Positions 22,909 to 39,829 of a stretch of 43,611 nucleotides of DNA are shown here, piece after piece (within the stretch, counting starts at the first letter, position 1; each line of letters begins with the position of its first letter). The notes beneath the pieces were generated by a model. That model ran no database searches and had not been told where the DNA came from. It was given only the letters and a program-made list of their open reading frames with translations. The position numbers and the translations under genes were made by a program. This stretch comes from a virus. The stretch spans positions 1 through 43,611 of the IMG/VR virus record IMGVR_UViG_3300008050_000096; one strand, given 5' to 3'.

Positions 22909-22936
22909 TTATACATGAAATGGAAACCTTGTCAAA
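22909..22936 (-). promoter_or_regulatory. sigma70-type early promoter
   Basis: On the minus strand, TTGACA, 16 nt, TATAAT, then AAGCGACATAATAACAACGG and AGG. This is one of many near-consensus early promoters. Confidence 0.85.
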
Positions 22937-23207
22937 GGTTTTGTGTGATCAATTCCATTTCAACATGTTTAAATTGTTCCATGTCGTTAATTTCATAGTG
23001 AATGACCTCAGTATGCTCAAAGCAAGCCCCTTTGGTTCCTGTATACATGGTGCATCCGTAATTATAGGAATTCACAAATCGTTCGGTTATTTCTCCGAAG
23101 ATGCTTTCATATTTATAGACAGAGAACCCTTTAAAAGTTCCATTAGTTTTACGATATATTGCATAATAATCTCCAACCTTCCTGTCTGCTTTATCAATAA
23201 TTTTCAT
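22932..23207 (-). CDS. member of expanded about 100-aa early protein family (terminal member)
   Basis: This 91-residue protein shares the family N-terminal pattern KVGDYYAIYRKTNGTFKGF (charged turn, G-x-Y-Y, then hydrophobic strand). The C-terminal ND-MEQFKHVEMELITQNL partly keeps the motif. It is the last gene of its array, and its tail lacks the embedded GGAG-ATG seen in inner members. It overlaps the upstream gene by 4 bases. Function unknown. Confidence 0.65.
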   Translation of the reverse strand: MKIIDKADRKVGDYYAIYRKTNGTFKGFSVYKYESIFGEITERFVNSYNYGCTMYTGTKGACFEHTEVIHYEINDMEQFKHVEMELITQNL

Positions 23208-23506
23208 ATTTCCTCCATCATGACATGTTTAAGCACCTCATCATCGTTAAGTAAAAAATGCATATCATTATCCTCGTTGGAATACTGGTCTGCATATGAG
23301 ATAATATCATGAGCATCATACTCCTTCGGTGTCAATAATTTACGTACAACTTTACCATCTTCAATGTACATTACTTGCGTAAACATAAGAATGCCGTCCA
23401 ATATGGAGGCAATTCGCAGTATCGTGCGATCATGTGGAGTTGTACCATCATAGTTGAGTATGTAACAAGGGTCTGGAAGTTGTAATAAGTCTGGATAGTG
23501 TGTCAT
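23204..23506 (-). CDS. member of expanded early protein family
   Basis: This 100-residue protein has an N-terminal PDPCYILNYDG and a C-terminal HFLLNDDEVLKHVMMEEI. The last codons (ATG GAG GAA ATA TGA) contain a Shine-Dalgarno and the ATGA that starts the next gene. It is closely similar to the + strand protein at 37377-37685 (both have ISYADQY or VSQYANQY, then NDxHFLL), so the family spans both early clusters. Confidence 0.7.
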   Translation of the reverse strand: MTHYPDLLQLPDPCYILNYDGTTPHDRTILRIASILDGILMFTQVMYIEDGKVVRKLLTPKEYDAHDIISYADQYSNEDNDMHFLLNDDEVLKHVMMEEI

Positions 23507-23826
23507 ATTTCCTCCATGACAACATGCTTGTTTACATCATCATCGTCCAATTCGTAGATTAATATACTCAGCATATTTCGACCCTTTCGGCACTCGCACA
23601 TAGCAGTTGAGTTTTCAGTATTCATTGATCTTTTGCCAAATGTTTTAGATCCTAGCTTCAGTTTAGACATTTTGAATGTGTTAAAATCAGTCCCACTGTC
23701 TAGTCTAGGTTTAACTCCGTTAAATTGGCACAAAATCATTTCCTTATAGGCAACGCCCACGAGGTCATTATAGAGCAGGTAATATTGCCCTTCTTTTAAA
23801 TTTGCTGTATCTTTAAGTAGTTTCAT
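23503..23826 (-). CDS. member of expanded early protein family
   Basis: This 107-residue protein has an N-terminal LKEGQYYLLYNDLVGVAYKE and the C-terminal LIYELDDDDVNKHVVMEEI tail. Codons of MEEI include GGAGG, and the ATATGA end overlaps the next start by 4 bases. A Cys pair (AMCECRKG) lies in the middle. It is the first gene of a three-member array behind its own promoter. Confidence 0.7.
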   Translation of the reverse strand: MKLLKDTANLKEGQYYLLYNDLVGVAYKEMILCQFNGVKPRLDSGTDFNTFKMSKLKLGSKTFGKRSMNTENSTAMCECRKGRNMLSILIYELDDDDVNKHVVMEEI

Positions 23827-23850
23827 TTATATCCTCCATTAGAAAGACAG

Positions 23851-23879
23851 AGTATTCCATAATTTGTTTCATTTGTCAA
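23851..23879 (-). promoter_or_regulatory. sigma70-type early promoter
   Basis: TTGACA, 17 nt, AATACT on the minus strand, upstream of the array starting at 23826. Confidence 0.65.
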
Positions 23880-23900
23880 CTTGATTTTTCTGGATTCGTG

Positions 23901-23917
23901 ATAAATAATTATGAGGA
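23901..23917 (+). promoter_or_regulatory. late-promoter-like element fused to RBS
   Basis: ATAAATAATTATGAGGA precedes the ATG at 23925. It faces away from the early promoter just upstream. Confidence 0.55.
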
Positions 23918-23924
23918 GTTAATT

Positions 23925-24182
23925 ATGGAAAAACAATATGGAATGGCAATGCCAGAAAAAGCAGGTAAAGTATTATGTAAAAAATGTCATACTTACTATA
24001 CCTTAAAAGCAGGTAAGCAGAAGTGTCCTTGGTGTGATACGATGAAACCTGACCCAAATAAATCAGAAACTGCAAAAGGTGGAAAGCCTACGCAAGTTGA
24101 TAAAGACCTTTTCAATTTTATGAAAACGGCAAGCTTGGAAGAGAAAACCAAGATTTTAAAATTCGTTAAGGAAGAACTTTAA
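23925..24182 (+). CDS. zinc-ribbon protein
   Basis: The start is ATG 23925, with GAGGAG 8 bp upstream. The 85-residue protein carries a CxxC...CxxC zinc ribbon (VLCKKCHTYYTLKAGKQKCP then WC) at about residues 17-37. A short helical C-terminal domain follows (DLFNFMKTASLEEKTKIL). It lies on the + strand between minus-strand early arrays and has its own late-type promoter. The function is unknown. Confidence 0.75.
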   Translation: MEKQYGMAMPEKAGKVLCKKCHTYYTLKAGKQKCPWCDTMKPDPNKSETAKGGKPTQVDKDLFNFMKTASLEEKTKILKFVKEEL

Positions 24183-24184
24183 TT

Positions 24185-24394
24185 ATGAAAAGTATTATTG
24201 GAACTACAGCATCAAACCCTATTCCACTTTGGGATCGGGGAGCAATTATGAAATATCTAGAAGGTCGATATGGCGAAGACTTCTTCGTAAATGGTGAAAG
24301 TGTAATCACCACAAACGAAGCAGTGGATGTTAAATTGATCCAGTTGAAATTAGATTCGGGTGAGTATAAGAATTTATACTTTGGGTTGTTTTAA
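24185..24394 (+). CDS. small protein, unknown
   Basis: The 69-residue product begins 3 bp after the zinc-ribbon gene. It contains IPLWDRGAIMKYLEGRYGED and a C-terminal strand pair. The RBS is distant (AAGGAAG, 15 bp), suggesting translation coupling. The end overlaps the convergent gene at 24374 by 21 bases. Confidence 0.6.
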   Translation: MKSIIGTTASNPIPLWDRGAIMKYLEGRYGEDFFVNGESVITTNEAVDVKLIQLKLDSGEYKNLYFGLF

Positions 24395-24958
24395 AGCAAT
24401 ATACACGATATTTTCAATTGGTCGCCACACGATAGATTCATCCCTTTCATCAATCAGCTTTACATTTCCACTCATAGGATCAAGTCCTGCGTAAATGAAT
24501 TGTTTAGCCCTGTTGAAAGGGTTTTTGCTTTTAAATTTAACCATAACCTTCTGGTCTAACAGTTCGTCCATGCCAAGTCCTAGAAACGGTTCTTCGGTCA
24601 TCACTTCCTTGGGAAGTTCAACATCAACAATTCGGTCTTCGCAATATGGGCAGAAATGTGCTTTAGGAGCATCCACCTCATCAAAGAATACAATATTCTT
24701 GCAGAATTTGCACATCTTAGTAACAAAGCTGTTGTTATTTGGATTACTTGCCTTATCAATACTGTTCTTAACAGGTTCTGGTAAGACTCCATCTTCTTTC
24801 TGCTGTGCTATATCTTCACTATCGTAGATCTCACCCCTTGGGATTTTAACCTTACAATATGGGCAAAGACTTGCATCACTCTCTGGAAGATCGTGGCAAA
24901 ACCACACTCCTCCACAGGTACATATGTTACCACGAAGTTGAATATTATCTATCATCAT
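24374..24958 (-). CDS. double zinc-ribbon protein
   Basis: The 194-residue protein has two CxxC pairs forming zinc ribbons: CTCGGVWFCHDLPESDASLC followed by PYC (about residues 13-36), and CKFCKNIVFFDEV...HFCPYC (about 83-108). An acidic linker and a C-terminal beta-rich domain follow (VMVKFKSKNPF...IENIVYIALKQ). It has RBS AAGGAG and a late-type CTAAGTATTTTTAAGGAG element upstream. It may bind nucleic acid or a protein partner; no enzyme motif is visible. Confidence 0.7.
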   Translation of the reverse strand: MMIDNIQLRGNICTCGGVWFCHDLPESDASLCPYCKVKIPRGEIYDSEDIAQQKEDGVLPEPVKNSIDKASNPNNNSFVTKMCKFCKNIVFFDEVDAPKAHFCPYCEDRIVDVELPKEVMTEEPFLGLGMDELLDQKVMVKFKSKNPFNRAKQFIYAGLDPMSGNVKLIDERDESIVWRPIENIVYIALKQPKV

Positions 24959-24963
24959 TTGTC

Positions 24964-24981
24964 TCCTTAAAAATACTTAGT
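24964..24981 (-). promoter_or_regulatory. late-promoter-like element (variant)
   Basis: On the minus strand CTAAGTATTTTTAAGGAG precedes the ATG of the double zinc-ribbon gene. Confidence 0.45.
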
Positions 24982-24987
24982 AAATTA

Positions 24988-25305
24988 TTATATAAAATCA
25001 ATTAACTCGTGGGCTTCTAATTCAAAGAACTCAATCAACATTCCTTGGAAAATCTTAATTCTGTTACATTCATCCTGCTCTGTAACCCTTTGGAAACTGC
25101 TAACCTTCAGATGTTGTCGTTCTAATCCATATCCAATTTCAAGACCCTGTGAACCTTTGACCATTCTATATCTCAAAATATGCTTCCACGAGTCATCATA
25201 TCCCAGAAATTGAATTATTTCAATCTCTTTATGTATCATATTTGAGGATCGATATGACAGATAGTACATATCTTCTTCCAGTTTATCATGTTTTACAGGT
25301 TTCAT
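24988..25305 (-). CDS. member of expanded early protein family (terminal member)
   Basis: This 105-residue protein has a family N-terminus KLEEDMYYLSYRSSN and a C-terminal LIEFFELEAHELIDFI. It is the last of its array, and its tail has no embedded GGAG, in line with the rule that only inner members keep MExI. It is translated from an ATGA overlap with the upstream member. Function unknown. Confidence 0.65.
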   Translation of the reverse strand: MKPVKHDKLEEDMYYLSYRSSNMIHKEIEIIQFLGYDDSWKHILRYRMVKGSQGLEIGYGLERQHLKVSSFQRVTEQDECNRIKIFQGMLIEFFELEAHELIDFI

Positions 25306-25631
25306 ATAACCTCCATAATATAATGCTTGTCTATCTCTTCTTTGTCAAGTTTAAAAAACATTTTTTTCAGGGTCAAGGATGCAACGTGTTCCAAATTCGG
25401 TGGACTGAAATTTGTGGCAAGGGAATCTCCAACGTACATGATTATAGTGAATCCTTTCGGAGTCCACTTCACCAGTTTACAATTTTTGCCTTTATTTCCC
25501 GTTGACCAAGAATACATTAAGTAAATTTCATCAGTTCTGAAATTACCCTTCTTATCATTCCAATTATTGCATCGTATTTCTTTCATATTACCCTCACAGT
25601 TGATGTCCTCTGGAGCATCAACGATCTTCAT
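25302..25631 (-). CDS. member of expanded early protein family
   Basis: This 109-residue protein has an N-terminal extension rich in Asn, Cys and Asp before FRTDEIYLMYSWSTGNKGK. It ends FFKLDKEEIDKHYIMEVI, with ATG GAG GTT ATA TGA giving the RBS and start of the next member. It overlaps the DUF1737-like gene upstream by 4 bases. Confidence 0.65.
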   Translation of the reverse strand: MKIVDAPEDINCEGNMKEIRCNNWNDKKGNFRTDEIYLMYSWSTGNKGKNCKLVKWTPKGFTIIMYVGDSLATNFSPPNLEHVASLTLKKMFFKLDKEEIDKHYIMEVI

Positions 25632-25807
25632 TTCACATGCTTTGGTTTATACAACACTATTGATAATAGTACTCCAGTGATCGATGATGTTGAATTTCGT
25701 TCAATATTAACACCACAATTTGGTTTAACCAACCAACCTTTATTGAGAAGGTCATTAACCGCTCTCTCATAGTCATTAATATCACTGCCTAGTACGATTT
25801 TATCCAT
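25628..25807 (-). CDS. DUF1737-like small protein
   Basis: The frame of 59 residues begins MDKIVLGSDINDYERAVNDL and continues with LNKGWLVKPN, the helix-GW-strand layout of DUF1737/DUF4177-type proteins. RBS AGGAGA lies 6 bp upstream, and the stop overlaps the next ATG (ATGA). The function is unknown. A terminator-like hairpin block lies just upstream. Confidence 0.65.
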   Translation of the reverse strand: MDKIVLGSDINDYERAVNDLLNKGWLVKPNCGVNIERNSTSSITGVLLSIVLYKPKHVK

Positions 25808-25827
25808 ATCATTCTCCTAAAAAGGTT

Positions 25828-25900
25828 GGGGGTGAGCGGGGGGAGGTAGTCCCACCCACCCCCGATGCCCGAAGGCATCAGTGGTTGGAGGTAGAACCAC
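25828..25900. other. three adjacent hairpins between operons
   Basis: Three stems are packed without gaps: GGGGGTG/CACCCCC (25828-25863), GATGCC-CGAA-GGCATC (25864-25879) and GTGGTT/AACCAC (25881-25900). On the minus strand the first is followed by AACCTTTTT, giving a terminator after the VWA gene. On the + strand the last is followed by AGTTTTT. Confidence 0.65.
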
Positions 25901-25905
25901 AGTTT

Positions 25906-27147
25906 TTAAATTTCACCATCATCTGCGAGATTACAGCATACACCGTACTCCTGACAGACATCATCATGCCCACCTTTGGAGATGACGAAGATGTTCGTTC
26001 CATCTGGCACTTTCGGACTGCGTTCGATGTATCCATCAGTCAGCGTAATAAAGATGCTAGACGTAATGTTGTTATCTTCGCAATACTCAGCAACACAACT
26101 GAAAGTCGTTCCACCAGATGAATGTGCCTTGTAAGACTGCAAATCTTGAGCAGTATCACGGTCAATGATCTTATCATCCTGCGGATCAATGTAGGTAGAC
26201 CAGAACAGCACACGGGCTTTAACCTGCTCATAGGCAGTACAGACTCCGCAAACTTCGCTCATGAAGTCCTTATACTCTTGATCGCCAATAGAACCAGATA
26301 CGTCAACCGTAATTACAACTTCAAGGTTTTCCTTGAGAGATGAAGGTTGGTAGATCCCTGTAGCACACCACTTACGATTCGGACGAGCGTTCGTATAGTT
26401 GAACGGAAGTTCACGAGTGATATACATGTTCAGAAGGTCTTTCCAGTTCAGTTTCGGAGTAAGGATACCGTCACAGATACGTTCCAAAGCACCACCAAGT
26501 TTACCACGGGTCTTAGCATAAGTTGCCGCATTTGTAAAGACTTGTTTCCACTTTTGTTGGTTCGCTTGATTCTGTCCCTGACCTTTCGCATCGCCAGTAG
26601 AGTTTCCTTGGTCATCTTCATCGCCTTGCATATGAGTGTCCATAGTACTGTAATTTTCCTTGACCTTTTCCGCTTCTTTTTCAAGAAGTTCATAGACCTT
26701 TTCAGCAGGGACATTTTTGACGTTGATAGTCAGTCCTGCCTTGTCAAGACGCATCGTTCCATCCATTTCTGGAAGTAGTACGCCTTTAGGAAGGTGCATT
26801 CCAGTTGATGTAAGGATGTAGTTGATCGCAATATCAGTTGCAATGTTCCAAAGCTCATGATCACGATGTTTCTGACGGTCAAATGTCAAAGTTGCCACAT
26901 GCATCGCTTCGTGTGCCAACGTAGCCATAAGTTCATCCAGTGTAAGGGTTTTCACGAATTCTGGGTTCCAATATAAGCGACCATACTTACTCACGCCCAT
27001 TGTAGGAATTCGTTCTGGATCACGACATTCAGTTGATTTCATGCTCAAAATAATTCGAGCAAAGAAAGGATGACTTTTATTCAAAAAAGCTTTCCCTTTA
27101 ATAATTCTTTCATGAGGAAGAAGATCCTCGAAACGTACAAGTGCCAC
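25906..27147 (-). CDS. DUF2201-type metallopeptidase-like/VWA protein (MoxR partner)
   Basis: The GTG start at 27147 follows GGAGG. The 413-residue protein has an N-terminal putative metallopeptidase motif HEAMH (residues 79-83) of the DUF2201 family, then an acidic Gln/Gly-rich linker (about 165-200). The C-terminal VWA domain has MIDAS residues D282-x-S284-x-S286 in VDVSGSIGD, a later HSSGGTTF and FITLTDGYIE. Such proteins work with MoxR AAA ATPases, and one is encoded at 31528-32667 in this window. The pair probably remodels a protein or complex; the target is unknown. Confidence 0.82.
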   Translation of the reverse strand: MALVRFEDLLPHERIIKGKAFLNKSHPFFARIILSMKSTECRDPERIPTMGVSKYGRLYWNPEFVKTLTLDELMATLAHEAMHVATLTFDRQKHRDHELWNIATDIAINYILTSTGMHLPKGVLLPEMDGTMRLDKAGLTINVKNVPAEKVYELLEKEAEKVKENYSTMDTHMQGDEDDQGNSTGDAKGQGQNQANQQKWKQVFTNAATYAKTRGKLGGALERICDGILTPKLNWKDLLNMYITRELPFNYTNARPNRKWCATGIYQPSSLKENLEVVITVDVSGSIGDQEYKDFMSEVCGVCTAYEQVKARVLFWSTYIDPQDDKIIDRDTAQDLQSYKAHSSGGTTFSCVAEYCEDNNITSSIFITLTDGYIERSPKVPDGTNIFVISKGGHDDVCQEYGVCCNLADDGEI

Positions 27148-27173
27148 AATATACCTCCTGCGTTAATGTTAAT

Positions 27174-27332
27174 TTAATTTACGAAAGAGAGGATACCTTC
27201 CTCAATTTCAACTGGACTCATAGTATACGGAAACCGCAACAATGTCAATCCATTTTCCTCACAATATTCATTTTTTCGTTTGTCATGTTCCTGAAGGGTT
27301 TCAAATTCTTCCTTCGGAATTAAATCAGAAAA
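27174..27332 (-). pseudogene. C-terminal scar of a homing-endonuclease gene
   Basis: An open frame without a good start encodes KEEFETLQEHDKRKNEYCEE, then NGLTLLRFPYTMSPVEIEEG and a stop. It aligns with the end of the intact endonuclease (NRDKIKTKYCIDKSINLCRI, PYTDLENINEII). The nuclease core upstream is missing; the tiny membrane-peptide gene takes its place. The early promoter of the VWA gene lies inside this scar. Confidence 0.7.
27220..27248 (-). promoter_or_regulatory. sigma70-type early promoter
   Basis: TTGACA, 17 nt, TACTAT on the minus strand, driving the VWA gene at 27147. Confidence 0.75.
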
Positions 27333-27393
27333 TTATAACAAGGATTGTCATTCCAATAACTAGAAATAGTATCCATGTTTCATATTCGTCCAT
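27325..27393 (-). CDS. 22-residue membrane peptide
   Basis: ATG 27393, with AGGAGG 6 bp upstream, encodes MDEYETWILFLVIGMTILVI plus IF and a stop: a short acidic head and one membrane helix. A clear early promoter (27429-27456) precedes it. The strong RBS and promoter argue for a real gene despite the size. Phage early membrane peptides sometimes target host membrane complexes, but no target can be named. Confidence 0.6.
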   Translation of the reverse strand: MDEYETWILFLVIGMTILVIIF

Positions 27394-27428
27394 AATATGC
27401 CTCCTGTTAAATTGTTTTGATGTGATCC

Positions 27429-27456
27429 ATTATACATGAATCACATCATCTGTCAA
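27429..27456 (-). promoter_or_regulatory. sigma70-type early promoter
   Basis: TTGACA, 16 nt, TATAAT on the minus strand, directly after the methyltransferase stop. Confidence 0.8.
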
Positions 27457-27457
27457 C

Positions 27458-28552: not shown

Positions 28553-28631
28553 TTGTTTCCGTGTTTCCTTTTATAGTTACTTCGTTATTTGATATAGTTT
28601 GTTTCTATGTAGTTTGTATCCGTATTTAAAT

Positions 28632-28667
28632 AAAGCTTACATTAATCTGGAGACTAATGCAAGCTTT
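28632..28667. other. long inverted repeat
   Basis: AAAGCTT-a-CATTA pairs with TAATG-c-AAGCTTT around a 10-nt loop. It lies between the ParB-like gene terminator and the methyltransferase gene. Confidence 0.6.
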
Positions 28668-28676
28668 TAATGCAAT

Positions 28677-28704
28677 AAAAAAGCCCCGACTGAATCGGGG
28701 CTTT
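28677..28704 (-). terminator. intrinsic terminator
   Basis: GCCCCGA and TCGGGGC around a 5-nt loop, with A/T runs on both sides; it follows the ParB-like gene. Confidence 0.92.
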
Positions 28705-28708
28705 GATA

Positions 28709-29614: not shown

Positions 29615-29656
29615 AATTTATATCTCCTTAATTTATTTAATTTGTTTAGGGTTCCT

Positions 29657-29684: not shown

Positions 29685-29687
29685 CAA

Positions 29688-29983: not shown

Positions 29984-29985
29984 AA

Positions 29986-30306
29986 TTATATCATCTCCAT
30001 TAGTATATGTTTGTTAATTTCATCATCAGTCAGTTCGTAAATTTCACAACCACTACGTTCTAAGAAATGACAACTCCGATCCTTCTCCATAAATGCTGTT
30101 GTGAATGATCTCACACTATCTTCAAGGGGGTTGCGATCCTCATTAGACCTATGGACAAAGCCCCCCAATGTTTTGATAAATATACAATTGTGGCTAGTGA
30201 ATCTAAAATACATAAGATGTTGCAGTACGGTGTCAGCATTAGGGTGATATCCCAAATACACTTTATCCGTCCGAAATTTTACTCCATCCAGATCAATACG
30301 TTTCAT
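29986..30306 (-). CDS. member of expanded early protein family
   Basis: This 106-residue protein has VKFRTDKVYLGYHPNADTVL near the start and the tail CEIYELTDDEINKHILMEMI (20 residues). The MEM codons hold GGAG, which serves the next, unrelated small gene. It starts from TAATG at the end of the upstream member. Confidence 0.7.
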   Translation of the reverse strand: MKRIDLDGVKFRTDKVYLGYHPNADTVLQHLMYFRFTSHNCIFIKTLGGFVHRSNEDRNPLEDSVRSFTTAFMEKDRSCHFLERSGCEIYELTDDEINKHILMEMI

Positions 30307-30638
30307 TATAAAGTCTCCGTTAGAATATGCACTAATATCTCATCATCTGTCAAGCGAAAAATGATGTCATCTCTCTCACCAACAAATATTCCACTTCCAT
30401 CTGTGATGCTTGAAACTGGGATGATATTATAATCCATCATATCTTTACCCCGAACCGTACCTCTAAATGAATCACCACTAAGCAGTGTGTATCTTGGAAA
30501 AGCTTCATCACGATCATAAAGCTTGCAGAATATTATATCTTGGCGAAATCCCCAAGTCCGATCTAATGTTTTATAATAGATTAGGTAGTATCCCTCTTCA
30601 CACAACTGCTCTGGAGCGATTTCAGTCAACACGTCCAC
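30306..30638 (-). CDS. member of expanded early protein family
   Basis: The GTG start lies inside the end of the gene at 30622. The 110-residue protein has LCEEGYYLIYYKTLDRTWGF and the tail IIFRLTDDEILVHILTETL, where ACG GAG ACT encodes the RBS of the following member. Confidence 0.65.
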   Translation of the reverse strand: MDVLTEIAPEQLCEEGYYLIYYKTLDRTWGFRQDIIFCKLYDRDEAFPRYTLLSGDSFRGTVRGKDMMDYNIIPVSSITDGSGIFVGERDDIIFRLTDDEILVHILTETL

Positions 30639-31149: not shown

Positions 31150-31464
31150 TTATATTTGAGACATCAGTATAGCATATTTTTCAGTCTCGTCAAGTGCAAA
31201 AAACAATCCACCGTAAGTTTCTGCCAGTAGTGTCATAGATCCAAGTCGTTCTACGGGAATCTCTGTAGTGTGTAGTATCAATTCTTCAGGACTAAGAGTG
31301 CAACGAAGTCTAACCCTCACATTTCCGTGGATCAATCCTGACAGTAGACAGTCCCGTTCATACATGAACACTTCAACCATCTTGCGGTGGAGTATTCCTG
31401 CTGATTCATGATATCGGAGATAATACTTACCACTTTCAAGATCTTTAAAATCAATCTGCTTCAT
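31150..31464 (-). CDS. member of expanded early protein family (terminal type)
   Basis: This 104-residue protein has LESGKYYLRYHESAGILHRK and ends LFFALDETEKYAILMSQI. Its tail lacks GGAG, and the following gene has its own RBS after the stop, which fits the embedded-RBS rule. It starts with AAGGAGG after a terminator, so it is probably expressed from read-through or an unseen promoter. Confidence 0.65.
   Translation of the reverse strand: MKQIDFKDLESGKYYLRYHESAGILHRKMVEVFMYERDCLLSGLIHGNVRVRLRCTLSPEELILHTTEIPVERLGSMTLLAETYGGLFFALDETEKYAILMSQI
31166..31193 (-). promoter_or_regulatory. sigma70-type promoter inside gene end
   Basis: On the minus strand, TTGACG, 16 nt, TATACT, within the last codons of the family member at 31150-31464. 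Confidence 0.6.
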
Positions 31465-31527: not shown

Positions 31528-32667
31528 TTAGGCAAGTGCGTAGCGGGCCGCAGATTCAAGGAGTTCCTTGAAGCGAGGATACTTCGCCAACGCAGTCTTG
31601 AACTTAGGGTTGGAATCGAACGAGGTGCGAATCATGTTCAATGCAACCACGCAGTATTCCTGCGGAAGTTCATGTGCTACTGCGAACATCTTCTTGGACT
31701 TCTCATCGTTCGGCTTAAGCTTACGAAGGTTCTCACCCAACAGTGCGCAAACTGCGAACCATTTGTCTGGGGAGTTGAGATCCATTACGGATTTCGGGTT
31801 CGCCATCAGTGCATCCAGATCAATCTTGGAAGCTACTGCGGTGTACGCACCGAATTCGGTAGCGAATGCTTCACCCAATGCACAGGAGGTCAGTGCATGT
31901 ACGGTAGGGTGCTCAATCGGCAGACCACACTTAGCGATCAGAGTAGAGGCACGAACCACACCACGAGGTGTTGAACCCTTATCTTCCGTACCAGAGGCAG
32001 GACGATACAAAGCGGAAGGTTTCCACTTGATGAAGGCGATAAGGTGATGGTTGATTTTATTCTTCCATGCCCAGTTGCACCATTCTTCATCATTCACACC
32101 AACTTCAACTTCCGAGAAACGGTCACGGAGTGGGAAAGGCATGGTGAATACGTGTGCCTTATCAGAAGCACGATTACCTGCACCGAAGATGAAAACATCA
32201 TCAGACAGTTTTATATCAGACACAACACGGTCGTTGATGATCTGATAAGCCTGACCTGCAACAACAGGTGGGGCGAGGTTAAGCTCATCGAAGAAAATTA
32301 CTCCTCGTGCGCCTTTTGAAGCATAATACTTCACCCATGCCAGTGGCATGTATTCCAAAGTGCCTTCTTCGCCACCTTTGGTCATGTTAGGAATACCACG
32401 CAAATCGGTAGTATCACACTGACCCAGACGGAAGTCGGTGAAGACGAAATAGTCTTCAGGTTTCTTCATGGCGAGAGTCTTGTCCTTTTCGGTCATTTCA
32501 TTCCATTCCATGAAATTACGACCTTCAGACTTCGCAATGTCCCCAAAAACCTGACGAGGAATTGCCGATTTACCGATCCCCGGCGCACCGTATACATACA
32601 GTGGGGTCTTGGTCTGGTCGTGAATTTTCAGCATATCGGTATATGCTCCTGTATCAATACTATACAT
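31528..32667 (-). CDS. MoxR-type AAA+ ATPase
   Basis: The 379-residue protein has Walker A YGAPGIGKSA (residues 26-35), Walker B VIFFDELNLAP (about 123-133) and sensor 1 FIFGAGNRAS. A later LRDRFSEVEV matches the arginine-containing region after the Walker motifs typical of MoxR proteins. MoxR ATPases usually pair with a VWA protein, and the DUF2201/VWA gene lies 4.4 kb downstream on the same strand. It is a single-gene unit with its own early promoter and terminator. Confidence 0.85.
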   Translation of the reverse strand: MYSIDTGAYTDMLKIHDQTKTPLYVYGAPGIGKSAIPRQVFGDIAKSEGRNFMEWNEMTEKDKTLAMKKPEDYFVFTDFRLGQCDTTDLRGIPNMTKGGEEGTLEYMPLAWVKYYASKGARGVIFFDELNLAPPVVAGQAYQIINDRVVSDIKLSDDVFIFGAGNRASDKAHVFTMPFPLRDRFSEVEVGVNDEEWCNWAWKNKINHHLIAFIKWKPSALYRPASGTEDKGSTPRGVVRASTLIAKCGLPIEHPTVHALTSCALGEAFATEFGAYTAVASKIDLDALMANPKSVMDLNSPDKWFAVCALLGENLRKLKPNDEKSKKMFAVAHELPQEYCVVALNMIRTSFDSNPKFKTALAKYPRFKELLESAARYALA

Positions 32668-32959: not shown

Positions 32960-32978
32960 CCACTAATTGTGGATATAT

Positions 32979-33434: not shown

Positions 33435-33460
33435 TGTAAACCTCCGTTGTTAAGTGTTAA

Positions 33461-33640
33461 TTAGGAATATTTCTTCTTTTCAGCGTCTACATATATATTA
33501 TCATCTTCTAAATTAACTTCACGATAATAATCAGTTTCTATGACCCCATTGACGGCAACGCCTTCCCGTTCAATAAGTCTACGTGATCTCATATAGCTTT
33601 TATGAATATCTAATTCAATAAGTGCTGTATCCAATGTCAT
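33461..33640 (-). CDS. 59-residue S4-like protein
   Basis: ATG 33640 follows AACAACGGAGG and a perfect early promoter. The protein has MTLDTALIELDIHKSYMRSR and RLIEREGVAVNGVIETDYYR, close to the S4 RNA-binding fold core (helix, S-x-R-x-L-I, then V-x-V-N-G). The rest is a short acidic-basic tail. S4 domains bind structured RNA; that function here is inference. Confidence 0.65.
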   Translation of the reverse strand: MTLDTALIELDIHKSYMRSRRLIEREGVAVNGVIETDYYREVNLEDDNIYVDAEKKKYS

Positions 33641-33668
33641 AACTACCTCCGTTGTTAATTGAGTCGCT

Positions 33669-33696
33669 ATTATAACTAAAATTGAAATCCTGTCAA
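33669..33696 (-). promoter_or_regulatory. sigma70-type early promoter
   Basis: TTGACA, 16 nt, TATAAT on the minus strand. Confidence 0.85.
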
Positions 33697-33699
33697 CTA

Positions 33700-33987
33700 T
33701 TATTTTCCAAGAATTTGGATAGTAATAGGATTAGTCACCATATTATATTTTCCAAGATTGTAAACTTCACCATCTTCTCTTTTCATAAGCCACTCACCAT
33801 CAACAGTTTGCTCAACTGTAATTGAGTATAGAGTATTAGTTCCCTTTTCCATAAGATGGAACAATTCTCTAGGAGGGTCTGCTGTATAGTGTTGTATGAA
33901 ATTTGAAATGAGGATTATAAATCCTGTAATTATAAGTGTCCAAAATACACCACTGCCCATTAGTTGTTCTATATCTTTTACATTCAT
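33700..33987 (-). CDS. single-TM protein
   Basis: The 95-residue protein has a hydrophobic helix at about residues 14-31 (VFWTLIITGFIILISNFI) and a soluble C-terminal part with strand pattern (YSITVEQTVDGEWLMKREDG). Its ATG overlaps the upstream family member's stop, and its RBS is the GGAG in that gene's MEII tail. Function unknown. Confidence 0.65.
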   Translation of the reverse strand: MNVKDIEQLMGSGVFWTLIITGFIILISNFIQHYTADPPRELFHLMEKGTNTLYSITVEQTVDGEWLMKREDGEVYNLGKYNMVTNPITIQILGK

Positions 33988-34292
33988 ATTATCTCCATTA
34001 CTATATGATGAGCAATTTCATCATCATTTAATTCAAACAGTACTGCTTTAAACTCCAAATTCTCAAATGAGAATGACGATACAAGGGTATTCATTATAGG
34101 TTCTTCAACCCAATGATCCTCATATCCTAGCCAACTGTTAAGTCTCCAGTACCCAATATGCTCATCTGGTAATCGTTCCGATAAACTAATCGGCTCAAGC
34201 TCTTGCTTGAATGCACAGACAATCTTAGTCACAGGGGTACTCCAATACGCAATATAGTATTTACCTTTCTCAGTTTTGTCAACAACTTTCAT
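33984..34292 (-). CDS. member of expanded early protein family
   Basis: This 102-residue protein has the family start KGKYYIAYWSTPVTKIVCAF and the tail LFELNDDEIAHHIVMEII. The MEII codons (ATG GAG ATA ATA TGA) supply RBS and start for the membrane-protein gene. It starts by TAATG at the previous member's stop. Confidence 0.7.
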   Translation of the reverse strand: MKVVDKTEKGKYYIAYWSTPVTKIVCAFKQELEPISLSERLPDEHIGYWRLNSWLGYEDHWVEEPIMNTLVSSFSFENLEFKAVLFELNDDEIAHHIVMEII

Positions 34293-34594
34293 TAGATAAT
34301 TTCAGCAACCACATGGTGGGCGAATTCATCAAAGGTGATTTCATAGATCTCACTAGTCCCTTGGTCGTTATCGGTTGGAAGAAGTTCCTGACCTCTCCAA
34401 AAGCTTTCAGTGACTGCGTGTATATTACCAGATTGGTAAATCTTACCATGGCAGATTGCTAGGAAGATCGAGTCTGTACTCGCCTTGCCCATATATTTAA
34501 AAAACGTCAATTGCTTTTGCTTATTTACTGTATTATTCCGATACATCATATAAAGCTTATGTCTGCGAATTTGTGTGTGGTGTATAGCTTGCAT
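34292..34594 (-). CDS. member of expanded early protein family
   Basis: This 100-residue protein has RRHKLYMMYRNNTVNKQKQL near the start and the tail IYEITFDEFAHHVVAEII. Here the tail codons (GCT GAA ATT ATC) keep the peptide but have lost GGAG, an exception to the embedded-RBS rule. RBS AGGAGG precedes its ATG. Confidence 0.65.
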   Translation of the reverse strand: MQAIHHTQIRRHKLYMMYRNNTVNKQKQLTFFKYMGKASTDSIFLAICHGKIYQSGNIHAVTESFWRGQELLPTDNDQGTSEIYEITFDEFAHHVVAEII

Positions 34595-34602
34595 ATTACC
34601 TC

Positions 34603-34914
34603 CTAAATGTTTTCCGCTACTGAGTGAAGAAGAAATTCTTCATCTGTCAATTCTAAATATGAGAAATTTTTACCAAGCACCATAGGGCGTTTTTCAACCT
34701 TTACCTCACGACTATATCGTTCCGATTCGTACTCACTTGGTCTAGTTTCATATGTCATACTGTATGCAAAGATCGGAGCGTCCACACTATCTGAAAACTG
34801 CCCCATTTGGAACATAAACAATAACTTTCGTTTGGTGTTAGTGGTAGCAGTGTTTTTAGCGTAGGCAACATAATAATTCCCTATCTTTAACTCGTTACGA
34901 AGTACTGGCTTCAT
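34603..34914 (-). CDS. member of expanded early protein family
   Basis: This 103-residue protein has LKIGNYYVAYAKNTATTNTK and the tail SYLELTDEEFLLHSVAENI, followed by AGGAGG after the stop. It overlaps the L7/L12-like gene by 4 bases (ATGA). Confidence 0.65.
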   Translation of the reverse strand: MKPVLRNELKIGNYYVAYAKNTATTNTKRKLLFMFQMGQFSDSVDAPIFAYSMTYETRPSEYESERYSREVKVEKRPMVLGKNFSYLELTDEEFLLHSVAENI

Positions 34915-35186
34915 AGTCCCATACCCGCAATATAATCTTCAACAAATTCCTTAGCCTCTCTAAGTCCAAATCCGCTAATATTACGAACGTGCTTGATTGC
35001 CTGAATCTTCTCACCCGCCTTTGCGAATCCTTCCAACAGTGGGTATTTGAGTTCACATTCCTTCATAGAATCTATGATCGCCTGTGGATTGGTTCGGGCA
35101 ATTCGCTCAACCAATGCTCTGTAATCATAATTGTCCGTCAATAGTACGTCAAGTACCTTGTTGAACTGTTGTATTGTAATATCCAT
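34911..35186 (-). CDS. ribosomal protein L7/L12 C-terminal-domain-like protein
   Basis: The 91-residue protein ends with KAGEKIQAIKHVRNISGFGL followed by REAKEFVED (about residues 56-84). This matches the L7/L12 C-terminal domain pattern K-x-x-x-I-K-x-V-R-x-x-T-G-L-G-L-K-E-A-K. The N-terminal half is helical and different from the L12 stalk-dimer domain. L12 C-terminal domains recruit translation factors, and phage-encoded copies have been reported in viral genomes. An early promoter (35219-35246) precedes it. Confidence 0.78.
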   Translation of the reverse strand: MDITIQQFNKVLDVLLTDNYDYRALVERIARTNPQAIIDSMKECELKYPLLEGFAKAGEKIQAIKHVRNISGFGLREAKEFVEDYIAGMGL

Positions 35187-35218
35187 TTAAAAACCTCCGT
35201 GTCGTTCAAGTTGCAAGT

Positions 35219-35246
35219 ACTATAACAGGAAAACTGGATATGTCAA
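35219..35246 (-). promoter_or_regulatory. sigma70-type early promoter
   Basis: TTGACA, 16 nt, TATAGT on the minus strand, then ACACGGAGG before the ATG at 35186. Confidence 0.75.
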
Positions 35247-35249
35247 GCA

Positions 35250-35543
35250 CTATAATTGAGGAATTACAAAATGACTTTGATATTCATCATAGTCTAGGTG
35301 AAAGAGGTTTTCAGAATCAGGTGATAAGTCTGTGGCATAATCATCTCGATATTGGATCATTTTTGTGTGATCGTTATCAATACCACTTAACCATGCATGA
35401 CGCACGGTGATAATGGAAAAGGTGTCCATAACTGGTTGGCTATCGAGTAGTTGGAATATTACCACCAACTTTCTACTTGACATTTTCTTATACATTGCAT
35501 ATAATTCGCCTTTCTTTAAATTAGCATACGGAACACTCTTCAT
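35250..35543 (-). CDS. member of expanded early protein family (terminal type)
   Basis: The start is ATG 35543 (MKSVPYANLKKGELYAMYKK); an in-frame ATG five codons upstream lacks an RBS. A CTAAGTAATTAT element runs into the ATG, as at 15624. The tail LFHLDYDEYQSHFVIPQL lacks GGAG and the gene ends a unit. It was placed in the family by its KKGELYAMY start and D-x-DEY tail. Confidence 0.6.
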   Translation of the reverse strand: MKSVPYANLKKGELYAMYKKMSSRKLVVIFQLLDSQPVMDTFSIITVRHAWLSGIDNDHTKMIQYRDDYATDLSPDSENLFHLDYDEYQSHFVIPQL

Positions 35544-35586
35544 ATAATTACTTAGCATAAAGCTCAGAAATACAATAGATAAAAGG

Positions 35587-35614
35587 TTGACAAGGAGTAT
35601 TCAGTATGTATAAT
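35587..35614 (+). promoter_or_regulatory. sigma70-type early promoter
   Basis: TTGACA, 16 nt, TATAAT, then GGCGCAACTTAACAACGGAG and the ATG at 35641. It marks the switch to + strand early genes. Confidence 0.88.
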
Positions 35615-35640
35615 AGGCGCAACTTAACAACGGAGGCGAT

Positions 35641-36603
35641 ATGAACAAACTTAAACCAGATACAGTAATAGGGTCATTGATGACTAAAGGGATTTTCCAA
35701 GATTTGGAGGCTTTTAGGCATAGAGATCCTGATCAAATATTTTCAGGACTGCAATTCGCACCAATTAATGTTAAACGATTTGGAGAATATTTCCGCAAGT
35801 GTATTGGAAACATCAATTCTATCGTTAAACGTGGGGAATTCGAAGCCGGTGACTATCAGATGGTTGTAAAGCAGAGAATCGGATATCGTAATACTGCTAG
35901 GACACAAGGATATGGAAACGCCCGATATGCAGATGATACGACTCTCTTTGCAGTCCTACACCCAATACACATGCCCTTAATCTGTAAGAAGGCAAAGCGG
36001 GAAATTGCTCAAGACTTTTTGGCACTTAAACAGGACTTCATTATACGTTTTCATAATCTGAAGGCACAAGCATTGGGTTTTGTTGATGATCAAGTGGCAG
36101 TATCTGACGCATTTGTAGTTGGCAGTAAAAAGCCTGACGATGGTACTTGGGCATATGAGGAGTTGGGTTACATGTTACTCAATTCAAGAGTCATCCCAAA
36201 GGATAAAGTGTTTATCACAATTGATCAAAACTATGACTACTTTGAAGCTCACACTAAGAGTATTGTAGCATCCACAGGACATGGGTATGCTAGGTCAAAT
36301 GTGGGCGAACTGTGTTATACGGTGTTCATTGATGAGAGTGAGGGTGATTGTGTTCAGAATACCACATTATTCAGCGTTCGTATGAATGGGACATCGCAGG
36401 AGGATGTTACGCGAATACCCACGTTGAATGTTTTTGATACACGGTTTAATGGAATTGATGTTTCTGGGATGACAGATTTTCTGGCTAATGCTCTGGAGAA
36501 TCTTAACAAGGATTTTGAAGCAGAGTTGGAAACCCTCAAGAACAAGTACCTTGGAGAATTCCTATTACATGAAATTTGTGAAAGTGAAGACGGTGCAATA
36601 TGA
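35641..36603 (+). CDS. hypothetical early protein, 320 aa
   Basis: The product begins MNKLKPDTVIGSLMTKGIFQ and is behind a strong promoter and RBS (GGAGG). It has mixed alpha/beta character, with YGNARYADDTTLFAVLHPIH and KVFITIDQNYDYFEAHTKSI. I do not recognise a family. A helical C-terminus (LNKDFEAELETLKNKYLGEF) follows. The stop overlaps the next ATG (ATGA). Confidence 0.7.
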   Translation: MNKLKPDTVIGSLMTKGIFQDLEAFRHRDPDQIFSGLQFAPINVKRFGEYFRKCIGNINSIVKRGEFEAGDYQMVVKQRIGYRNTARTQGYGNARYADDTTLFAVLHPIHMPLICKKAKREIAQDFLALKQDFIIRFHNLKAQALGFVDDQVAVSDAFVVGSKKPDDGTWAYEELGYMLLNSRVIPKDKVFITIDQNYDYFEAHTKSIVASTGHGYARSNVGELCYTVFIDESEGDCVQNTTLFSVRMNGTSQEDVTRIPTLNVFDTRFNGIDVSGMTDFLANALENLNKDFEAELETLKNKYLGEFLLHEICESEDGAI

Positions 36604-36908
36604 TCTGGTGGATTATTTGGATCGCAGGAATATTCCCCTGTTACATATCGTATGTGTTGGTAATATGCCACTTTGATCATACAGGATTCATTGAGTATTT
36701 CCACGACAGTGATTATGATACATCACAGTTTGCAATGTTTATTGGTTCAATACTTTGGTTCATATTTGCTCCAGTATTCTGGATAGTGATTATATTTAAT
36801 CCTGTCGTTGATTCGATGGATGATATGAAATTTAATCCATTCCATTGGAGTATTAAGAAGATGACAGCAAAGGCACATGTTCGTAACAGAGTAATTGAAG
36901 AAATCTAA
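36600..36908 (+). CDS. membrane protein (two TM)
   Basis: The 102-residue protein has hydrophobic segments at about residues 2-22 and 45-70, separated by an acidic loop (HDSDYDTS). It ends in a basic helix (SIKKMTAKAHVRNRVIEEI). Translation is coupled to the upstream gene by ATGA. Function unknown. Confidence 0.65.
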   Translation: MIWWIIWIAGIFPCYISYVLVICHFDHTGFIEYFHDSDYDTSQFAMFIGSILWFIFAPVFWIVIIFNPVVDSMDDMKFNPFHWSIKKMTAKAHVRNRVIEEI

Positions 36909-36916
36909 AAAAGATA

Positions 36917-36945
36917 TTGACAGAGTGATCAGTCGTTGCTATAAT
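36917..36945 (+). promoter_or_regulatory. sigma70-type early promoter
   Basis: TTGACA, 17 nt, TATAAT, leading to the acyl-carrier-like gene. Confidence 0.88.
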
Positions 36946-36987
36946 GACGACCTATTAAAAAATAAATCCAAACTAAGGAGAATAAAA

Positions 36988-37320
36988 ATGAGTAAAGATA
37001 AAAAGAAAGCGGAAGCTTTGGAAAAAATCCGTAATGTGTGTGAACGCATTTTGGGCGTTGAGCGTGAGGATGTAACGGTTGATAGGATCTTCGCATCAGC
37101 ACCTGACGGCATGGCAGACACCGATGCGAAGCGGGATCTGTATCTGGGCATGGATCAAATTGATGCTATGAAGTTTATGCTCTACACTGAGCAGGAATTC
37201 AACAAGGAAATTGACGATTCATTGTTCGTTCCTCGTAAGGATACCGTGATTGAAGACATGTGGCGTGAGCGTCCTGTTGGTGATCTGGTTAATTACTGTG
37301 TTGATGAAGTAATGGACTAA
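36988..37320 (+). CDS. acyl-carrier-protein-like protein lacking the attachment serine
   Basis: ATG 36988 has RBS AAGGAG 7 bp upstream; the longer frame would span the promoter. The 110-residue protein has CERILGVEREDVTVDRIF, then DLYLGMDQIDAMKFMLYTEQ and EFNKEIDDS, which follow the order of an acyl carrier protein. The phosphopantetheine site D-S-L is replaced by D56-Q57-I58, so it cannot carry the cofactor there. It may mimic or bind carrier-protein partners; inference. Confidence 0.72.
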   Translation: MSKDKKKAEALEKIRNVCERILGVEREDVTVDRIFASAPDGMADTDAKRDLYLGMDQIDAMKFMLYTEQEFNKEIDDSLFVPRKDTVIEDMWRERPVGDLVNYCVDEVMD

Positions 37321-37376
37321 GTTCATGATCGAATTACCACAGGATGGACAACTGAAATGTTGACACGGGAACTATA

Positions 37377-37685
37377 GTGACTTTAATATGGGATGTAGAA
37401 GATTTTCCAGATGATGGATATGTTGTAAATTACACTTGTGAACACGGTTCGGGTGATAGAAAAGTCATCCACATGATTAGAATCGCTAACGGAGTCCTTA
37501 AATTTATAGAATGTGTTGAAGTTAATAGGTGCGATGATCATCTCAAAATTGATGAGAGTGGTGGTGGCGGGGCTGAATATACCGTTAGCCAATACGCTAA
37601 CCAATACGCTATGAGGGAGAACGACATACACTTTCTTCTTTCTGATGAAGAAGTGTTAATGCATATTGTAACGGAGGCAATCTAA
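37377..37685 (+). CDS. member of expanded early protein family
   Basis: The GTG start gives a 102-residue protein with DVEDFPDDGYVVNYTCEHGS at the start and the tail HFLLSDEEVLMHIVTEAI. The codons ACG GAG GCA hold GGAGG, used by the next member. It is the + strand relative of the protein at 23204-23506. Confidence 0.65.
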   Translation: MTLIWDVEDFPDDGYVVNYTCEHGSGDRKVIHMIRIANGVLKFIECVEVNRCDDHLKIDESGGGGAEYTVSQYANQYAMRENDIHFLLSDEEVLMHIVTEAI

Positions 37686-37686
37686 T

Positions 37687-37995
37687 GTGACTTATGTAGA
37701 TCCAGATACCTTGGAGAAAGGGAACTTTTACCTCTTCTACAAGACATATGAGGAGTATCGCCCCGATATCATTATCGGGGCGTTTGAGGAATATGATCGT
37801 GATGATGTCCCATGTAGAACTGCAATATTGAATAATGTTCTATCATGGGTGGTTGGTCATAATTTTTCTATAGCACACTCTATTGGAAAGAAGGATCAAA
37901 GGTTTTGCGAATTGAGTGCGCCACATTCAACTGTTTGGTGTTTTGAGCTTGACAAATCCGAAGTAGAATGTCATATTCTTATGGAGATGCTATGA
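37687..37995 (+). CDS. member of expanded early protein family
   Basis: The GTG start (MTYVDPDTLEKGNFYLFYKT) follows the previous stop by 1 bp. The tail CFELDKSEVECHILMEML includes ATG GAG ATG CTA TGA, giving RBS and ATGA overlap for the next gene. 102 residues. Confidence 0.7.
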   Translation: MTYVDPDTLEKGNFYLFYKTYEEYRPDIIIGAFEEYDRDDVPCRTAILNNVLSWVVGHNFSIAHSIGKKDQRFCELSAPHSTVWCFELDKSEVECHILMEML

Positions 37996-38267
37996 AACTG
38001 GTGACTAGAGATGAAATGGTAGCAGGTGAATATTATATGATCTTTGAATCAATCACTCCATGTAAGATCGTGATAATTGGAATAAAATGTCCAAACACTA
38101 ATCATGTATTAGGACAAATGATGTTCCGTCACGCAGAAATGGGCATAGAAGTGCGTGACAATGACAGGTGGGCTGTGTATGATAGTGAGGGAACGTTTTC
38201 TTCCCAGACCATATACGAACTCAACGATGATGATATTCACAAACACGTAATAATGGAGACAATATGA
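37992..38267 (+). CDS. member of expanded early protein family
   Basis: This 91-residue protein has VTRDEMVAGEYYMIFESITP and the tail IYELNDDDIHKHVIMETI; ATG GAG ACA ATA TGA feeds the next gene. The start ATG 37992 lies inside the previous stop. Confidence 0.72.
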   Translation: MKLVTRDEMVAGEYYMIFESITPCKIVIIGIKCPNTNHVLGQMMFRHAEMGIEVRDNDRWAVYDSEGTFSSQTIYELNDDDIHKHVIMETI

Positions 38268-38509
38268 AAATATTAGTAAAACTTGAAGGTCGGACACCAA
38301 CACTAACTGCAACTGAAAATAAAGTCAAATGTATATTGACATTGGGCAAGTCACATGATATAACAACTACTGGAGATGATACTAATGGGTTGGCTAACCG
38401 AATTGCGTATTCGCATAGAGTGTGGTTTGGTCAAAATCTCACAGGCGTAGATTATTTGCAATTTATAAAAGAGGATTTACTCGAACGAAGTACCCCGAAA
38501 GGAGATTGA
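38264..38509 (+). CDS. small early protein, unknown
   Basis: This 81-residue protein is co-translated from the preceding ATGA and has KILVKLEGRTPTLTATENKV. It is not a clear family member, because it lacks the GxYY start and the MExI tail. Its 3' end GAAAGGAGATTGATGG supplies RBS and start for the next gene. Confidence 0.6.
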   Translation: MKILVKLEGRTPTLTATENKVKCILTLGKSHDITTTGDDTNGLANRIAYSHRVWFGQNLTGVDYLQFIKEDLLERSTPKGD

Positions 38510-38745
38510 TGGAATTAACACTTTACATTTTAGCACTACTGGTGATATTATTCTCTCTATGTGCAGTGGTATGGATTTTATCAGCAATATCAGGAGAATC
38601 ATTTTTTCGCGCAATGAAGAAGATTCCATTTTTAAGGAAACTTTTACTTGCATTTGTAATTTTTTGCCCTATAATCAATCACACATTAGCGATGTTGTGT
38701 ATAGGTGCATGGGTCGCATTTTTTATAGAGGCTATTAAGGATTAA
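38509..38745 (+). CDS. small membrane protein (two TM)
   Basis: ATG 38509 (MELTLYILALLVILFSLCAV) overlaps the upstream stop by one base. The 78-residue protein has hydrophobic helices at about residues 4-25 and 45-73, separated by a basic loop (RAMKKIPFLRK). Function unknown. Confidence 0.65.
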   Translation: MELTLYILALLVILFSLCAVVWILSAISGESFFRAMKKIPFLRKLLLAFVIFCPIINHTLAMLCIGAWVAFFIEAIKD

Positions 38746-38756
38746 GGAGATTATAC

Positions 38757-39527
38757 ATGTCAAAAGTTACGAGAAGTGAAAAGTTGAAGAAATATGTTGT
38801 CGTTATTCGGGAGAATGTCGTGCATAATTTGGACGGTGAAGATCGCAGAAAATTGCTTTCCGAAATCTATATGCTAAAACCTAATACTGTGATGTCTGGT
38901 GGCACATGGCGAGAATATCAAAAAGTATATTATCGTGAGATTGTAGGTGAGCGAGGCACTGATATTGGAATGGAGAATGCACAATCCTATATTTCAGTTT
39001 CTGGTTGCGTGGACGATCTCATTGATCTTAATTTTAAGAGTTCAGCATTGGAGACTAATAATATAAAGGTTGTAAAAACATATGCGAACAACAAATTTAT
39101 GAAGCGTGACCGTGAAACTTCATTCCATCGTGAATACGAACTGGACGTTGATGAAGACGGCAACCCATACATGAAGCGTGTGGACAAGAATGCTCCGCAA
39201 CCTGCAACGCCTCCTGCACCTAAAGTGAAGGCAGACTTCTCAACGATTCCTGCGGGATCGAAGTATCTATACTCAAGGCTTAACACTCCAGATGGTGAAT
39301 GTATCGTGGTGACTGATGTAATGCACTGGTTGCAGAACAACTCCCAGAATGATACTATGATCAGTGGTATGGATACAAGTCTGGACGCACTTGCCCCTGC
39401 GGGATGGAGTGAACTTGGATCAACGGTGATTGAACCTGACGATGGCGACTTTGATGCACTTGAAAAGGCATTGCAAGCCGATCCAGATTGGGGCAGTGAT
39501 CCAACATTCGATCAGTTCAACGCATAA
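38757..39527 (+). CDS. hypothetical protein, 256 aa
   Basis: The product starts MSKVTRSEKLKKYVVVIREN, with RBS AAGGAG. It has a helical or charged N-terminal part, a Pro/Ala linker (APQPATPPAPKVKADFS, about residues 145-162) and a C-terminal acidic region ending DWGSDPTFDQFNA. No family was recognised. It overlaps the next member by one base. Confidence 0.65.
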   Translation: MSKVTRSEKLKKYVVVIRENVVHNLDGEDRRKLLSEIYMLKPNTVMSGGTWREYQKVYYREIVGERGTDIGMENAQSYISVSGCVDDLIDLNFKSSALETNNIKVVKTYANNKFMKRDRETSFHREYELDVDEDGNPYMKRVDKNAPQPATPPAPKVKADFSTIPAGSKYLYSRLNTPDGECIVVTDVMHWLQNNSQNDTMISGMDTSLDALAPAGWSELGSTVIEPDDGDFDALEKALQADPDWGSDPTFDQFNA

Positions 39528-39829
39528 TGAAACGGGTTGACATATCAGATATGGTTATTGGCGAACCATATCTAATTTACTTCCACGATCATGTGGAAAT
39601 AGCTATTGGGGTCTACCAAGGTGATGGTGATAATGATCATCTTGGAAAGGGGATCTTTTTTAAAGTCAACTATCGTATAATTAGAGGTGATTATGTTGAC
39701 AATGAGCATTTCTATGAGTATTCAGAGGTTGATGGTGAAGATGTGCTAGATGAGGACTATGCTCCCCCTGATGAAATTTTTCACTTGACAAGTCACGAAT
39801 ATTATGTGAGTATCATCGACACAATTTAA
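39527..39829 (+). CDS. member of expanded early protein family (terminal type)
   Basis: This 100-residue protein has ISDMVIGEPYLIYFHDHVEI and the tail IFHLTSHEYYVSIIDTI. The tail lacks GGAG, and the next gene has its own AAGGAG after the stop, again as expected for the rule. Confidence 0.65.
   Translation: MKRVDISDMVIGEPYLIYFHDHVEIAIGVYQGDGDNDHLGKGIFFKVNYRIIRGDYVDNEHFYEYSEVDGEDVLDEDYAPPDEIFHLTSHEYYVSIIDTI

What the first reader, a model, noticed from the sequence alone, without database searches (positions are those of the whole stretch)
22932..39829. Large family of about 100-residue early proteins on both strands
Seen: about 14 proteins share a start of the form (K/E)xGxYYxxY and an end (L/I)xDDE(I/V)xxHxxMExI, with strongly divergent middles. 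Locations include 22932-23826, 24988-25631, 29986-30638, 31150, 33984-34914, 35250, 37377-38267 and 39527. Inference: repeated duplication with fast divergence, as expected for host-interacting or anti-defence proteins.
Basis: partly seen in the sequence, partly recalled or inferred. Interest (0 to 1): 0.82.

Follow-up and report, generated by a model that had tools for sequence, protein, structure and literature searches.

The report
Sixteen-member family of phage early proteins
An uncharted, probably T4-related phage carries at least 16 distantly related ~100-residue proteins of unknown function in its early region, built alike at both ends with unrelated-looking middles, which look like a diversified set of host- or defence-directed proteins; part of the shared end is simply the ribosome-binding site of the next gene.

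Summary
A leave-one-out profile recovers 16 paralogues (not 14) among 462 window ORFs, each at E 4e-13 to 1e-4; the best ORF outside the described genes was never below 0.002. The ends are conserved and the middle is not (mean BLOSUM62 per column 0.91 / -0.27 / 1.78 for N end / middle / C end). Four more tandem genes (42531-43535) carry a related tail and are probably distant cousins; a fifth cousin lies in another viral contig. No Pfam, PHROG, NCBIfam, PADLOC, PDB-sequence or isolated-phage relative was found.

AlphaFold models of two members both place a strand and helix at the conserved C end and beta strands at the N end; one resembles a small beta-barrel (weak, Z<=5.2). Early expression fits perfect sigma-70 promoters in this region.

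The final 'MExI' is largely the Shine-Dalgarno of the abutting next gene (GGAG in 9/10 versus 0/6 members, p=9e-4). In the cousin group the last 45 nt are conserved as DNA and include a promoter-like sequence.

Best reading: a diversified early effector family on a constant scaffold. The host/anti-defence role is plausible but untested.

The parts
22932..23207 (-). family A member (91 aa; tail extended by 5 residues, ends where a perfect promoter begins)
   Evidence: LOO E=1.1e-5
23204..23506 (-). family A member; closest pair with 37377 (34% identity, E about 1e-13)
   Evidence: LOO E=5.3e-7; AF2 model 2, pLDDT 75.9, pTM 0.67
23503..23826 (-). family A member
   Evidence: LOO E=3.7e-13
24988..25305 (-). 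family A member, worn tail
   Evidence: LOO E=4.6e-8
25302..25631 (-). family A member; tail holds TTGACA-17-CATTAT
   Evidence: LOO E=8.5e-8
29986..30306 (-). family A member
   Evidence: LOO E=1.9e-11
30306..30638 (-). family A member; tail holds TTGACA-18-CATATT
   Evidence: LOO E=4.7e-10
31150..31464 (-). family A member, worn tail with TTGACG-16-TATACT
   Evidence: LOO E=1.8e-6
33984..34292 (-). family A member
   Evidence: LOO E=3.1e-8; AF2 model 1, pLDDT 67.8
34292..34594 (-). family A member
   Evidence: LOO E=3.4e-10
34603..34914 (-). family A member; Shine-Dalgarno of the next gene lies after the stop
   Evidence: LOO E=8e-9
35250..35558 (-). family A member (likely start 35543)
   Evidence: LOO E=5.5e-7
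37377..37685 (+). family A member (GTG start)
   Evidence: LOO E=2e-6
37687..37995 (+). family A member (GTG start); tail holds TTGACA-17-CATATT
   Evidence: LOO E=8.1e-9
   Evidence: LOO E=8.2e-11
39527..39829 (+). family A member, worn tail, most divergent
   Evidence: LOO E=9.7e-5
42531..42797 (+). family B cousin; top non-A hit of the family A profile in the window (E=0.0017)
42770..43030 (+). family B cousin
43039..43263 (+). family B cousin
43272..43535 (+). family B cousin
42750..42807 (+). family B tail element, one of four: TTGACA-17-TATGGT-ATTACCAAGAATTATT-stop-GGAGG-ATG, conserved as DNA
35219..35246 (-). sigma-70 promoter 11/12 (TTGACA-16-TATAGT) ahead of the leftward operon with three family A genes
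35587..35614 (+). perfect sigma-70 promoter (TTGACA-16-TATAAT) for the rightward genes
22908..22935 (-). perfect sigma-70 promoter starting at the stop codon of member 22932

Best explanation
This is one true paralogous protein family, orphan in the collections searched, in the early region of a large, probably T4-related phage. Shown: 16 members share both ends and not the middle; they sit in operons with perfect sigma-70 promoters; two modelled members put beta strands at the N end and a strand plus helix at the C end. Inferred: the constant ends form one small beta-barrel-like scaffold, and the variable strands and loops between them carry the specificity. Made at the start of infection, each member would bind a different host or defence protein, so the set works as a diversified kit for host takeover or counter-defence. 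Overlaid on this, 3' ends that abut the next gene double as its ribosome-binding site, which fixes the final MExI residues.
For: Leave-one-out recovery of all 16. N end and C end conserved, middle at chance. AF2: model 1 confident at E12-18, E23-29, E82-88, H90-101 with the middle below pLDDT 50; model 2 has E14-19, E30-36, E39-49, E52-58, H68-75, E82-86, H88-96 with pTM 0.67; weak small-barrel matches, several of them Sm/LSm at Z 3.4-4.5. Perfect promoters with ribosome-binding-site leaders. Leucine and other codons vary freely in family A tails, so the LxDDExxxH part is largely kept at protein level. GGAG in the last codons of 9/10 members with an abutting next start versus 0/6 others, p=8.7e-4.
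Against: No functional match in any library, so the effector role rests on context only. Both models came from essentially the same 16-row alignment and are not independent; fold matches are weak. Early timing is inferred from promoters, not measured. No test of positive selection was possible. Pair similarity does not follow gene order, so the duplication history is obscure.
Confidence: 0.5

Rival explanations
1. The shared C-terminal block is mainly a DNA/RNA regulatory element (promoter plus Shine-Dalgarno for the next gene) that happens to be read in frame, so the apparent family is partly an artefact of shared regulatory DNA.
For: Final MExI tracks the need for a Shine-Dalgarno (p=8.7e-4). 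Family B tails are near-identical as DNA (codon identity 0.81 versus 0.37 expected; 92/73/92% over the last 45 nt, then falling to 29%) and all carry TTGACA-17-TATGGT. Promoter scores of A and B tails exceed codon-shuffled controls (combined p 0.0023 and 0.0005) while other early genes do not (0.56).
Against: In family A the tail DNA varies at synonymous sites (codon identity 0.56 versus 0.48), only 4 of 16 tails hold an individually significant promoter-like site, no non-coding or out-of-frame copies exist in the window or G002, and the N-terminal motif is independent of it. Paralogues are not independent, so the p-values are optimistic.
Confidence: 0.15
2. The C-terminal block is a common targeting, docking or degradation tag carried by otherwise unrelated small proteins.
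For: A related tail occurs in families A and B although the bodies differ; it is terminal and helical in the models.
Against: The N end is conserved too, and in both models the tail strand and helix are part of the predicted fold; worn tails are tolerated (24988, 31150, 39527).
Confidence: 0.12
3. Selfish or neutral amplification: paralogues persisting by recombination without individual selected functions.
For: Many copies, no conserved catalytic residues seen in the alignment, worn members.
Against: All 16 are intact open frames; highly divergent neutral copies in a compact phage genome would be expected to decay.
Confidence: 0.08
4. A multi-subunit assembly, for example an Sm/LSm-like hetero-ring whose subunits diverged.
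For: Weak Sm/LSm matches at Z 3.4-4.5; many paralogous barrel-like proteins from one genome.
Against: Matches are below the level that means anything (Z<8); no Sm sequence motifs were tested for; the C-terminal strand-helix is not typical of Sm.
Confidence: 0.07

Closest known systems
Hyperplastic / ORFan early regions of T4-like phages (e.g. S-PM2 ORFanage, PMC4503421; hyperplastic regions as described in PMC2147016)
   Same: Clusters of small genes without known relatives, early-type promoters.
   Different: Here 16 of the genes are one recognisable paralogous family; the cited regions are described as collections of ORFans or of exchanged domains.
PeSL promoter-stem-loop cassettes of T4-type phages (Arbiol 2010, Comeau 2014, as cited in PMC4503421; originals not held)
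   Same: Repeated promoter-bearing sequence between early genes, possible substrate for shuffling.
   Different: The tail lies inside coding sequence and has no terminator stem-loop.
Small beta-barrel (SH3-like / Sm) folds
   Same: Strand order of model 2 and weak structural matches.
   Different: No sequence match; Z at most 5.2; extra C-terminal helix.

Membership tests
Any described protein family (Pfam, PHROGs, NCBIfam, PADLOC) | Score above the curated cut-off or E<=0.001 | tested here: not met
   Best whole-library E is 0.01 (phrog_37525, one member)
PeSL cassette | Intergenic position | tested here: not met
   Tails are the last codons of open frames
PeSL cassette | Early promoter in the repeated unit | tested here: inconclusive
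   10/12 promoter-like sites in 4 of 16 A tails and all B tails; excess over codon shuffles
PeSL cassette | Stem-loop terminator in the unit | tested here: not met
   No listed terminator-like site falls in a tail on the coding strand (which covers 24.0-43.6 kb)
Small beta-barrel / Sm-like fold | Clear structural match | tested here: inconclusive
   Foldseek E>=0.7; VIA Z up to 5.2, Sm/LSm 3.4-4.5
Anti-defence / host-takeover effectors | Binds or inhibits a host or defence protein early in infection | not testable with these tools
   Only early-type promoters shown
Single paralogous family A | Each member recovered by a profile of the others | tested here: met
A and B as one superfamily | Profile similarity beyond chance | tested here: inconclusive
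   hhalign P=1e-4, probability 58%; B members are the top non-A hits in the window (1.7e-3) and in G002 (0.048)

The most novel reading that the evidence does not exclude
Each gene is a cassette whose 3' end is read three ways: as the C-terminal strand-helix of the protein, as a sigma-70 promoter, and as the ribosome-binding site for the next gene. Any two cassettes could then be joined by recombination at the tails and remain expressed, letting the phage reshuffle an array of early effectors without breaking expression.
Probability: 0.15. Interest if true: 0.75.

Novelty: new variant of a known kind. Interest (0 to 1): 0.52.

Why it matters
Most phage early genes are orphans that cannot be grouped. 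Here 16 divergent members share a genome and a recognisable frame, so one can ask directly whether an early region is a diversified kit built on one scaffold, and screen the set as a unit. The double use of gene ends for expression of the next gene could explain how such arrays stay functional while they are reshuffled.

Tried and rejected
Relatives of family A: viral contigs pattern scans and an alignment scan gave nothing beyond a chance hit (L004, inside a methyltransferase-like frame); genome contigs gave two chance hits inside unrelated frames; tblastn of two members and of the consensus in isolated phages gave no credible match. Relatives through neighbouring genes: ATPase and vWA scans found none; one family B relative came from the tail pattern. 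TTGACAGATGAAGAA hits in six further contigs encode unrelated LTDEE peptides. Proteasome, signal peptidase and other sub-threshold profile hits judged chance. phrog_37525 fits only one member. Foldseek in PDB and viral models: no significant match. VIA second look: Cif, Myosin VI, YopQ and similar rows at Z 2-5 are not interpretable. Recent tandem duplication rejected: similarity does not follow distance. DNA-mimic idea dropped: pI ranges from 4.2 to 7.7.

Full report
What was checked. The window is a 43.6 kb viral record, without close relatives: no megablast match in isolated phages. A virion protein is 32% identical to cyanophage proteins, so a T4-like myovirus is likely but not proven. Gene direction switches near 17 kb and 35.4 kb: genes run leftwards from about 35.5 kb to 17 kb and rightwards from about 35.6 kb.

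The family is real. Leave-one-out profiles recover 16 members at E 3.7e-13 to 9.7e-5; the best ORF outside the described genes was never below 0.002. A C-terminal profile alone finds 13 at E<=2e-6 and nothing in the shuffled window ORFs. The closest pair, 23204 and 37377, is 34% identical (E about 1e-13) yet lies on opposite strands 14 kb apart. Across all pairs, similarity does not correlate with genomic distance, so this is not a fresh tandem array. Mean BLOSUM62 per aligned column is 0.91 at the N end, -0.27 in the middle and 1.78 at the C end.

A second group. Four genes at 42531-43535 end in YFxLTDEEVxxMVLPRII. Profile-profile comparison with family A gives P=1e-4, probability 58%. The family A profile ranks a B member first among non-A ORFs in the window (E=0.0017) and the B relative first in the other contig (E=0.048). 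That relative, L005:11060-11290 in IMGVR_UViG_3300025133_000155, shares only a GIY-YIG-like gene and a methyltransferase-like gene with the window otherwise.

What the conserved end is. Codons in family A tails vary freely (same-residue codon identity 0.56 versus 0.48 expected, p=0.013), so the part FELxDDExxxH is largely kept as protein. The final MExI is different: in 9 of 10 members whose next gene starts within 6 nt the last codons contain GGAG, against 0 of 6 others (Fisher p=8.7e-4). ATGGAGGAAATATGA reads M-E-E-I-stop and also Shine-Dalgarno plus overlapping start.

Family B tails are conserved as DNA. Codon identity is 0.81 versus 0.37 expected (0 of 1000 shuffles). Nucleotide identity is 92, 73 and 92% over the last three 15-nt steps and falls to 51% and then 29% upstream, with the other contig included. 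The block starts at TTGACA and spans TTGACA-17-TATGGT. With a sigma-70 weight matrix and codon-shuffled controls, A tails (combined p=0.0023) and B tails (0.0005) exceed expectation while other early gene ends do not (0.56). Only four A tails (31150, 25302, 30306, 37687) are individually below 0.05. Shared descent inflates these values, so the promoter reading is a hypothesis for a subset. PWM scans found no non-coding copy of either tail.

Timing. Twelve strong promoter matches, most of them perfect TTGACA-16/17-TATAAT, lie across 22.9-42.2 kb, mostly ahead of genes and followed by leaders with Shine-Dalgarno sequences such as AACAACGGAGGT. By analogy with T4-like phages (own knowledge), host-type consensus promoters mean early expression.

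Structure. Two AlphaFold runs with the 16-row family alignment: member 33984 gave pLDDT 67.8 with confident N-end strands, a C-end strand and a C-terminal helix, the middle below 50; member 23204 gave pLDDT 75.9, pTM 0.67, with four strands, a helix, a closing strand and a terminal helix. That order resembles an SH3-like small barrel; VIA-align lists several Sm/LSm chains at Z 3.4-4.5, top Z 5.2 for an unrelated myosin domain, too weak to claim membership. Foldseek found nothing significant. The prediction 'unrelated folds' that would have refuted the finding did not come true, but the models share one alignment and are not independent.

Known relatives. None in Pfam, PHROGs, NCBIfam, PADLOC, PDB sequences or isolated phages, none for family A in IMG/VR by pattern or alignment, and only chance hits in GTDB genomes. 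Absence in these scans is limited by their need for short exact motifs.

Interpretation. The best-supported account is an early family with constant ends on a probable small beta-barrel scaffold and variable middles, used against several host or defence targets. The family, its ends and the ribosome-binding-site overlay are shown; the early setting is strongly suggested; the targets and the effector role are inference.

Noticed in passing
window 20675-21913 (-): M16 (insulinase-type) peptidase with both Pfam M16 domains, found in few phages (24 of 50,697 records).
   Followed up: partly
window 25906-27147 (-) and 31528-32667 (-): DUF2201 putative metallopeptidase/VWA protein and MoxR-like ATPase, a pair interspersed with the family.
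   Followed up: no
window 34911-35186 (-): First gene of a leftward operon with three family members has a ribosomal L7/L12 C-terminal domain match (E=5e-8).
   Followed up: no
window 36895-37320 (+): Acyl-carrier-protein-like gene (phosphopantetheine site, E=1.3e-5) directly ahead of three family members.
   Followed up: no
L005 6210-11775: The other contig with a family B member has it abutting a NADAR-domain gene, downstream of a NUDIX gene and two coenzyme-A-type flavoprotein genes, suggesting an NAD/CoA metabolism cluster.
   Followed up: partly
window 22908-22935 (-): A perfect promoter begins at the stop codon of member 22932, whose tail is extended by five residues.
   Followed up: no
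window 41588-42262 (-): GIY-YIG homing-endonuclease-like gene on the opposite strand near the family B array.
   Followed up: no
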